Positions 10,073 to 63,947 of a DNA stretch of 64,000 bases are shown here, in pieces. The position numbers and the translations under genes were made by a program. Position 1 is the stretch's first letter; the number at the start of each line of letters is the position of its first letter. Origin of the DNA: Symbiodinium natans (Eukaryota > Sar > Dinophyceae > Suessiales > Symbiodiniaceae); NCBI GenBank assembly GCA_905221605.1, contig CAJNDS010000002.1, forward strand, positions 1 to 64,000. The letters are read 5' to 3'. The notes beneath the pieces are model-generated. The model saw only the letters and a list, made by a program, of their open reading frames with translations. It made no database searches and was not told the DNA's origin.

Positions 10073-10129
10073 TCAGACATCAAGCAGCCGTGTCCTCCAA
10101 CAATCGTCGTAGTCGATGTGCATCTTCAC
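10073..10129 (-). CDS. Last exon: YDDCW tail and stop
   Basis: Follows GGAGCAG|G and reads 18 codons in phase 0 ([18 protein letters not shown]) before TGA at 10073-10075. I recall this ending from dinoflagellate proteins that carry CISC-type deaminase-like domains. It joins exactly in phase to the exon ending at 10,729, giving [17 protein letters not shown]. Confidence 0.6.
   Translation of the reverse strand: MKMHIDYDDCWRTRLLDV

Positions 10130-63947: not shown

What the first reader, a model, noticed from the sequence alone, without database searches (positions are those of the whole stretch)
10073..63947. A repeat-plus-deaminase gene: candidate dinoflagellate counterpart of PPR-DYW editing factors
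Small minus-strand exons join into WAFA/octotricopeptide-like repeats followed by HTE ... CCISC ... YDDCW. Seen directly: the peptides, AG|G acceptors and agreeing phases. Known: dinoflagellate organelles edit RNA heavily, and plants use RNA-binding repeats fused to a deaminase for editing. Inferred: this protein does a similar job with a different repeat type. I do not know of an established enzyme for dinoflagellate editing.
Basis: partly seen in the sequence, partly recalled or inferred. Interest (0 to 1): 0.92.

Follow-up and report, generated by a model that had tools for sequence, protein, structure and literature searches.

The report
OPR-repeat deaminase gene, likely dinoflagellate
A heavily split gene in what is probably a coral-symbiont-type alga joins RNA-gripping repeats to a base-changing enzyme domain, much as plant RNA-editing factors do but from different parts, and its genome holds a family of such genes, which makes them good candidates for the long-missing organelle RNA editors of these algae.

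Summary
Minus-strand exons encode seven repeat-like first helices of the OPR/RAP/FASTK type (joined exons against PDB: editing-complex protein RESC6 E 5.6e-11, mL115 3.1e-5), a linker exon at 18.7 kb, and a C-terminal zinc-deaminase domain (HTE ... CCISC ... YDDCW). The window's own genome (759 Mb) holds paralogues: PPR repeats + HAE/PCISC deaminase in one open frame (L009); PPR + HxE exon in one frame (L020, L042); OPR repeats + PCLSC deaminase-like domain in one frame (L012; L018 similar but without any Pfam deaminase hit). L009 confirms the splice joins HTERQ|ALLEV and [12 protein letters not shown]. The deaminase is not DYW: no scanned member hits PF14432, while L011 passes Pfam's cut-off for BURPS668_1122 toxin-type deaminases. 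Best reading: a helical-repeat RNA-editing factor, convergent with plant PPR-DYW, built on OPR (in paralogues PPR) repeats plus a toxin/APOBEC-like deaminase. Not shown: one transcript, organelle targeting, fold, catalysis, substrate. No exon was recognised between 42.3 and 18.7 kb, nor the 5' end. Seven searches of an incomplete full-text library listed no paper on this family.

The parts
63869..63970 (-). E1: first exon seen, [34 protein letters not shown] (possible repeat or N-terminal cap)
   Evidence: acceptor tttctag|G, donor GAG|GT; no profile hit of its own
62736..62795 (-). E2: repeat-like exon [20 protein letters not shown]
   Evidence: weak in profiles (E 7.1, E 6.9)
60763..60803 (-). 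E3: repeat exon [14 protein letters not shown]
   Evidence: E 8.4e-7
60321..60354 (-). E4: second-helix exon [11 protein letters not shown]
   Evidence: joins E3 in phase 2 by a GC donor of my choice; E3-E4 part of the RESC6 and mL115 alignments
58893..58967 (-). E5: repeat exon [25 protein letters not shown]
   Evidence: joined with E6: RESC6 E 1.9e-9; 2.1e-5
58278..58373 (-). E6: exon [32 protein letters not shown], second helix plus next repeat; period 37-38 residues with E5
   Evidence: 0.031
51687..51748 (-). E7: repeat exon [20 protein letters not shown]
   Evidence: 1.4e-6
50616..50678 (-). E8: repeat exon [21 protein letters not shown]
   Evidence: 0.14
42282..42327 (-). E9: repeat-like exon [15 protein letters not shown]
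   Evidence: E 1.4
18644..18719 (-). Linker exon [25 protein letters not shown], shared with OPR- and PPR-type paralogues
   Evidence: linker HMM from L011, L020, L024, L018, E 0.0058, best of 2,821 ORFs (next 2.2); BLASTP to L020 E 0.004; a stricter regular expression missed it; coordinates
17561..17603 (-). E10 (provisional): [14 protein letters not shown]
   Evidence: splice-site and reading-frame reasoning only; phase does not agree with the linker donor
15636..15670 (-). E11 (provisional): [11 protein letters not shown]
   Evidence: no homology support; donor phase disagrees with E12
14244..14279 (-). E12 (provisional): [12 protein letters not shown]
   Evidence: no homology support
13119..13175 (-). 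E13: deaminase exon [19 protein letters not shown] with HxE
   Evidence: 3.3e-4; donor CAG|GC fixed by L009 (HAERQALI)
12084..12148 (-). E14: deaminase exon [21 protein letters not shown](L)
   Evidence: start fixed by L009; end (CT|GC) inferred
11105..11126 (-). E15 (provisional): VLRRGDY, strand before the zinc cysteines
   Evidence: fits length and phase; too short to test
10729..10800 (-). E16: deaminase exon [24 protein letters not shown] with CxxC
   Evidence: 2.3e-7; donor CAC|GC fixed by L009 (FPKVKL)
10073..10129 (-). E17: last exon [18 protein letters not shown] and stop TGA

Best explanation
The window holds one nuclear gene, about 54 kb long and split into small exons by repeat-filled introns, for a protein with an array of OPR-type helical repeats, a conserved linker and a C-terminal zinc-dependent deaminase of the toxin (BURPS668_1122)/AID-APOBEC-like kind. 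Shown: the repeat family, the zinc-ligand motif, kinship with a multigene family in the same genome, single-frame fusions of this domain with PPR (L009) or OPR (L012) repeats. Inferred: the repeats dock on a chosen stretch of single-stranded RNA and place one base in the active site (His and two Cys bind zinc, Glu shuttles the proton), most likely turning C into U in mitochondrial or plastid transcripts. OPR or PPR supplies the address, and paralogues with altered HxE may be non-catalytic partners. Odds: repeats and deaminase-superfamily domain real 0.95; one gene in the window 0.75 (lowered from 0.8 on re-check, because L018's domain gets no Pfam hit); RNA-editing factor 0.65; organelle site-specific editor 0.55.
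For: OPR repeats; for L018 (3 of 3 PDB hits at E<=0.1: RESC6, mL115, RESC8). Deaminase: control; pair E 2e-19 to L009; 9 of 9 PDB hits at E<=10 deaminases, best E 0.072; 27 of 28, best 7.2e-4; L011 34.2 bits, over the 29.6 cut-off. Fusion: L009 PPR+HAE/PCISC in one 424-aa frame; L012 OPR+DGE/PCLSC in one 340-aa frame (OPR HMM 5.8e-10; toxin-deaminase 4.5e-4); L018 OPR+DAE/PCVSC in one frame; L020 PPR+HAERQ (PDB PPR 1.8e-7); L042 long PPR array+HSERQ in one 1,034-aa frame; L011 with a PPR frame about 0.3 kb upstream (PPR_2 1.3e-11). One gene in the window: linker exon and absence of PPR. Need for such an enzyme: passages of PMC12787238, PMC4079212, PMC11453091.
Against: No cDNA. No exon recognised between 42,282 and 18,719; that stretch holds long frames of unknown kind on both strands, e.g. 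465 and 395 aa on the minus strand at 31.5-35.4 kb without a Pfam hit at E<=0.01, which could be other genes. E10-E12 and E15 lack homology support and two phases disagree. The 5' end and any targeting peptide were not found in 20 kb upstream. The usual PCxxC proline is Cys in the window. The window's own Pfam matches lie below curated cut-offs, and PDB searches with the window's domain alone gave no deaminase. L003 came up in the first probe only at E 2.94. L018's deaminase-like domain has no Pfam hit even at E<=10, and L024, L020 and L042 none to a deaminase; L024 and L042 were found at E 1.49 and 3.21. In the tree the window's domain is nearest to PPR-fused L009, unresolved. The OPR paralogues (L012, L018, L017, L024) have lost the His of HxE, so no other OPR member with canonical HxE + CxxC was seen. 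Nothing shows RNA rather than DNA or nucleotide as substrate.
Confidence: 0.58

Rival explanations
1. Two neighbouring genes on one strand: an OPR gene (63.9-42.3 kb) and a separate deaminase gene (18.7-10.1 kb), perhaps with undetected PPR exons.
For: 23.6 kb without a recognised exon between them, with long frames of unknown kind; the window's deaminase is closest to PPR-fused L009; dinoflagellate genes lie in co-oriented clusters (PMC11453091, passage).
Against: No PPR exon detected in the window (best E 0.92); the linker exon of both fusion types lies between; OPR-deaminase fusion in one frame in L012, and with weaker support L018; a 26,372-bp dinoflagellate intron is on record (same paper, passage).
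Confidence: 0.23
2. A decaying pseudogene or non-catalytic pseudoenzyme of the family.
For: CCISC in place of PCISC; degenerate repeats (AMAFAKPN); paralogues L015 and L024 have lost the motif; very long introns.
Against: His, Glu and both Cys kept; no stop inside the exons as cut; an AG acceptor and a GT, GC or GA donor available for each; exon GC 0.63 against 0.52 for the window.
Confidence: 0.15
3. A deaminase that works elsewhere: nuclear mRNA or tRNA editing, or mutation of foreign DNA, as APOBEC or ADAT proteins do.
For: Profile kinship to AID/APOBEC, dCMP deaminase and ADAT2; nuclear mRNAs of Symbiodinium are edited too (PMC5357065, start of abstract in listings and passages); no targeting peptide seen.
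Against: Fusion to OPR or PPR arrays, which are mostly tied to organelle RNA (PMC8190603 passage; PMC13126933 passages).
Confidence: 0.25

Closest known systems
Plant PPR-DYW RNA-editing factors
   Same: Helical RNA-binding repeats followed by a C-terminal zinc deaminase with HxE and CxxC; multigene family; some members with altered active site (plant side recalled).
   Different: Deaminase of another family (no PF14432 hit), no terminal DYW, repeats OPR in the window (PPR in paralogues), no E or E2 motif in the Pfam listings.
BURPS668_1122 toxin-type deaminases and AID/APOBEC-like deaminases (PF14424, PF08210, PF18772, PF18778, PF18750)
   Same: HxE ... (P)CxxC; best curated match of the family (L011 34.2 bits, cut-off 29.6).
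   Different: Those are secreted toxins or free-standing animal enzymes (recalled); here the domain sits behind RNA-binding repeats.
OPR/RAP/FASTK organelle proteins (RESC6, RESC8, mL115)
   Same: 37-38-residue helical repeats with an LSNxxWAFA-like first helix.
   Different: They carry no deaminase (recalled); many end in a RAP domain, which no Pfam scan here showed.
Dinoflagellate DYW-PPR candidates (PMC4079212, PMC5357065, PMC12787238; passages)
   Same: Proposed repeat-plus-deaminase editing factors of dinoflagellates.
   Different: Those were assigned by similarity to DYW, two per species; in this genome PF14432 gives four matches, none over the cut-off, two of them 2.3 kb apart on contig C2291. 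I did not compare those published sequences with this family; they could overlap.

Membership tests
PPR-DYW editing factors | PPR repeats | tested here: not met
   PPR HMM from L009, L020, L027: no window ORF better than E 0.92; paralogues L009, L020, L042, L011 have them
PPR-DYW editing factors | DYW-type deaminase domain (PF14432) | tested here: not met
   absent from the Pfam listings of the spliced window and of the family members scanned
PPR-DYW editing factors | HxE...CxxC zinc signature | tested here: met
   HTE and CISC in exons E13 and E16
PPR-DYW editing factors | Terminal D-Y-W | tested here: not met
   protein ends [12 protein letters not shown]
PPR-DYW editing factors | Organelle targeting | tested here: inconclusive
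   5' end not found in contig bases 64,001-84,000
OPR-type helical repeat proteins | Tandem repeats of about 38 residues with conserved first helix | tested here: met
   period 37-38 across E5-E6; second helices of several repeats not found
OPR-type helical repeat proteins | RNA binding | not testable with these tools
   needs binding assay
BURPS668/AID-APOBEC-like deaminases | Zinc motif HxE and PCxxC | tested here: met
   met with Cys for Pro in the window; PCISC/PCVSC in L009-L011
BURPS668/AID-APOBEC-like deaminases | Profile score over curated cut-off | tested here: inconclusive
   window best 18.8 bits of 27 (SNAD4); paralogue L011 34.2 of 29.6; L018 domain no hit
BURPS668/AID-APOBEC-like deaminases | Deaminase fold | not tested
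   structure prediction takes unspliced window frames or loci of certain other tools only; not sent

The most novel reading that the evidence does not exclude
Dinoflagellates evolved their own organelle RNA-editing factors in parallel with plants by fusing a bacterial-toxin/APOBEC-like deaminase to two unrelated addressing arrays, OPR and PPR, with His-less or motif-less paralogues as partner subunits; this would supply the missing enzyme of dinoflagellate C-to-U (and possibly A-to-I) organelle editing, and a second natural modular repeat-deaminase code.
Probability: 0.45. Interest if true: 0.95.

Novelty: new variant of a known kind. Interest (0 to 1): 0.85.

Why it matters
Dinoflagellate mitochondria and plastids edit their RNA extensively, and the enzyme is unknown: a 2026 review leaves even the DYW candidates an open question (PMC12787238, passages). 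A genome-encoded family of OPR- and PPR-linked deaminases gives a short list that can be tested now against editing maps. If right, site-specific editing by repeat-guided deaminases arose at least twice from different deaminase stock, and OPR arrays become a new scaffold for programmable RNA editing.

Tried and rejected
First splices (HTERQAMT.. and [11 protein letters not shown]) gave one weak deaminase hit (Bd3614-like E 0.039) and none in the five strings. With GC donors six deaminase models appeared for one linker variant, four to six for the other three, and paralogue L009, found later, has exactly those joins. PDB by the spliced 93-aa and 71-aa domains alone: no deaminase hit. NCBIfam: nothing relevant. 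Rfam: 0 matches. Relatives in viral and prokaryote contig collections: none confirmed, but these scans use two to six short patterns. PPR in the window: not found. More repeat exons upstream: no hit better than E 0.036 in 64-84 kb. Upstream 5 kb of L010: best OPR hit 0.048, PPR not searched. Tree of nine domains: no supported branch. The counts of matches (17 at E<=10; 22, 14 of them at E<0.1) are not gene counts: some may be two exons of one gene (C1787), some are chance (L023, L025; L004), and neither search listed the window's own exons, so split members are missed. All 17 were read; of the 22, 14 were read, 2 were fetched without a clear frame (L043, L044), 6 were not looked at. Not obtained because the genome search was busy: an OPR census, a PF14424 census and a probe with the L018 domain.

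Full report
WHAT WAS CHECKED. The window is bases 1-64,000 of contig C2 of a 759,417,921-base assembly in 2,543 contigs. Assembly size and GC (window 0.516) resemble the published Symbiodinium natans assembly (761.6 Mb, 2,855 scaffolds, GC 51.8%; passage of PMC8045281); that identification, and dinoflagellate origin itself, are my inference. No Rfam family reaches its cut-off. Introns are full of TTTAGGG-like 7-base arrays.

REPEATS. Six-frame reading gives minus-strand exons with the pattern L-S/A-N-x-x-W-A/G-F/C-A. In a motif scan of both strands the eleven best hits, and 16 of the 20 listed, are on the minus strand; several of those are chance (motif partly recalled). The 58-residue join of E5 and E6 matches RESC6, an RNA-editing substrate-binding complex protein, at E 1.9e-9 and mL115 at 0.02 (that RESC6 is from trypanosomes and mL115 from an algal mitoribosome is recalled); the join of nine exons gives 5.6e-11 and 3.1e-5. 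An HMM from the repeats of L018 and L024 only puts five window ORFs, all minus and in 50-61 kb, on top of 2,821 ORFs. So these are OPR/RAP/FASTK-type repeats. No PPR repeat is found in the window (best E 0.92).

DEAMINASE. The exons HTERQ and CCISC were first joined with the wrong donors and gave next to nothing. Reading AG|GC and C|GC donors, which dinoflagellates use (passage of PMC11453091), gave a peptide that hits SNAD4 0.0018, NAD1 0.0051, APOBEC2 0.0051, BURPS668 toxin-deaminase 0.023, NAD2 0.026, APOBEC_N 0.072 and no other Pfam family (protein 2). The three other linker variants tried hit four to six models each, likewise deaminases only, best E 0.014 to 0.046. 0 of 10 shuffles hit a deaminase. 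All these scores are below curated cut-offs.

PARALOGUES. The own genome holds L003/L009 (C1833), first met at E 2.94: one open frame of 424 aa with PPR repeats (designer PPR E 2.6e-16; Pfam PPR_3 only 0.11) and VFAQHDRSNHAERQALI...RLYASHTPCISCMACFCQFQRLFPKVKLCVDFDDW; it aligns to the window at E 2e-19 with the joins that I had chosen before. With L009 as probe there are 17 matches at E<=10, with L010 22. Motif states of the 17: intact HxE and CxxC in one frame L009, L010, L011; HxE seen, CxxC exon not located L019, L020; CxxC exon only L013, L014, L016, L021, L022; His replaced L018 (DAE), L012 (DGE), L017 (CAE), all with PCxSC; degenerate L015, L024; chance L023, L025. Two more: L038 (CAE/PCLSC) and L042 (HSE; CxxC exon not located). 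Repeat type: PPR in the same frame L009, L020 (PDB PPR 1.8e-7; no Pfam PPR), L042 (1,034 aa, PPR_2 7.8e-34); a PPR frame about 0.3 kb upstream of the L011 deaminase frame (PPR_2 1.3e-11). OPR in the same frame: L012 (OPR HMM 5.8e-10 for that frame; toxin-deaminase 4.5e-4), L018 (RESC6 6.5e-9), L024 (FAST_1 2.8e-5), weakly L017 (0.017). The deaminase likeness of L018 rests on the genome matches (0.032, 0.030) and the motif; Pfam shows nothing there. L012 is therefore the best single-frame proof of OPR + deaminase.

FAMILY PLACE. The profile of 11 rows (one is the window, four are fragments) matches 28 PDB sequences at E<=10; 27 are deaminases: dCMP deaminase 7.2e-4, ADAT2 1.4e-3, APOBEC3G 2.1e-3 and so on; one is not. 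Scanned one by one at E<=1, 6 of 11 hit NAD1, SNAD4, APOBEC_N and APOBEC2, 5 of 11 the BURPS668 toxin deaminase (best 6.5e-9), one a Zn_SUZ12 model; DYW is not in the list. L011 passes the toxin-deaminase cut-off (34.2 against 29.6 bits). PF14432 in the whole genome: four matches, none over the cut-off; two on C2291, 2.3 kb apart, cover profile positions 33-67 and 76-93 and may be one split DYW gene.

ONE GENE? Between repeats and HxE the paralogues L011, L020, L024, L018 share a stretch like SLGxxFTxxALxxLGL. An HMM of it finds one window ORF, 18,740 minus, [26 protein letters not shown] 0.0058, next best 2.2; against L020 alone E 0.004. So the order on the minus strand is repeats (62.8-42.3 kb), linker (18.7 kb), deaminase (13.2-10.1 kb), as in L018 and L024. 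Against: 23.6 kb between E9 and the linker without a recognised exon, with long frames of unknown kind on both strands; disagreeing phases at linker|E10 and E11|E12. A reverse-transcriptase-like frame lies between E8 and E9 (44.3-48.5 kb, E 0.0032, below the cut-off). An upstream neighbour may be a CCCH-type frame near 78.4 kb (my reading, not scanned).

MECHANISM. Shown by sequence: addressing repeats, linker, zinc ligands and catalytic Glu. From family knowledge: OPR and PPR arrays bind single-stranded organelle RNA; deaminases of this fold hydrolyse the amino group of C or A. Inferred: site-specific editing of organelle RNA. Passages of PMC12787238, PMC4079212, PMC5357065 and PMC11453091 say that organelle and nuclear mRNAs of dinoflagellates are edited, that about 620 PPR genes and one ADAR gene were counted in S. 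minutum, and that DYW candidates are two and doubtful. The listings of my seven searches on this point, each capped at 10 to 25 papers, show no paper on an OPR- or PPR-fused toxin/APOBEC-like deaminase of dinoflagellates. The library lacks subscription journals and preprints; the surveys of the deaminase superfamily (Iyer 2011, Krishnan 2018; recalled) are not held and could mention algal members.

VERDICT. A real and striking gene family; the window's member is the only OPR member seen with canonical HxE and CxxC. It would work like PPR-DYW; it is not PPR-DYW.

Noticed in passing
L028 and L030 (G000:C2291:301503-301610 and 303795-303848, +): Two sub-threshold DYW_deaminase matches 2.3 kb apart covering different parts of the profile: perhaps one split DYW gene.
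   Followed up: no
L024 and L015: Family members that have lost the zinc motif (FAE...PSLCTL; GCE...PSTAAL), L024 behind a long OPR array: likely pseudoenzymes.
   Followed up: partly
L018, L012, L017, L038: HxE replaced by DAE, DGE, CAE, CAE while PCxSC is kept: altered or lost catalysis, seen in the OPR-linked members.
   Followed up: partly
L042:134-3235: Open frame of 1,034 aa with a long PPR array ending in a linker and HSERQ: a plant-like editing-factor layout; CxxC exon not located.
   Followed up: partly
window 44,298-48,506, -: Retroelement-like frame between E8 and E9 (RVT_1 E 0.0032, below the cut-off).
   Followed up: no
window 31,467-35,373, -: Long frames of 465 and 395 aa with no Pfam hit at E<=0.01, in the stretch where no exon of the gene was recognised.
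   Followed up: partly
window 10-64 kb: Arrays of the plant-type telomere word TTTAGGG in both orientations fill the introns, and exon E6 is followed at once by GTTTAGGG, so the array supplies the splice donor.
   Followed up: no
window 22,932-24,024: 378-base unit repeated 2.9 times at 93%.
   Followed up: no
window about 3,615, -: LERIIWGFTKIG, possibly a repeat exon of another gene downstream; not significant (E 0.44).
   Followed up: no
L006, about contig C2 78,421, -: Open frame with a CCCH-type zinc-finger look, candidate upstream neighbour; not scanned.
   Followed up: no
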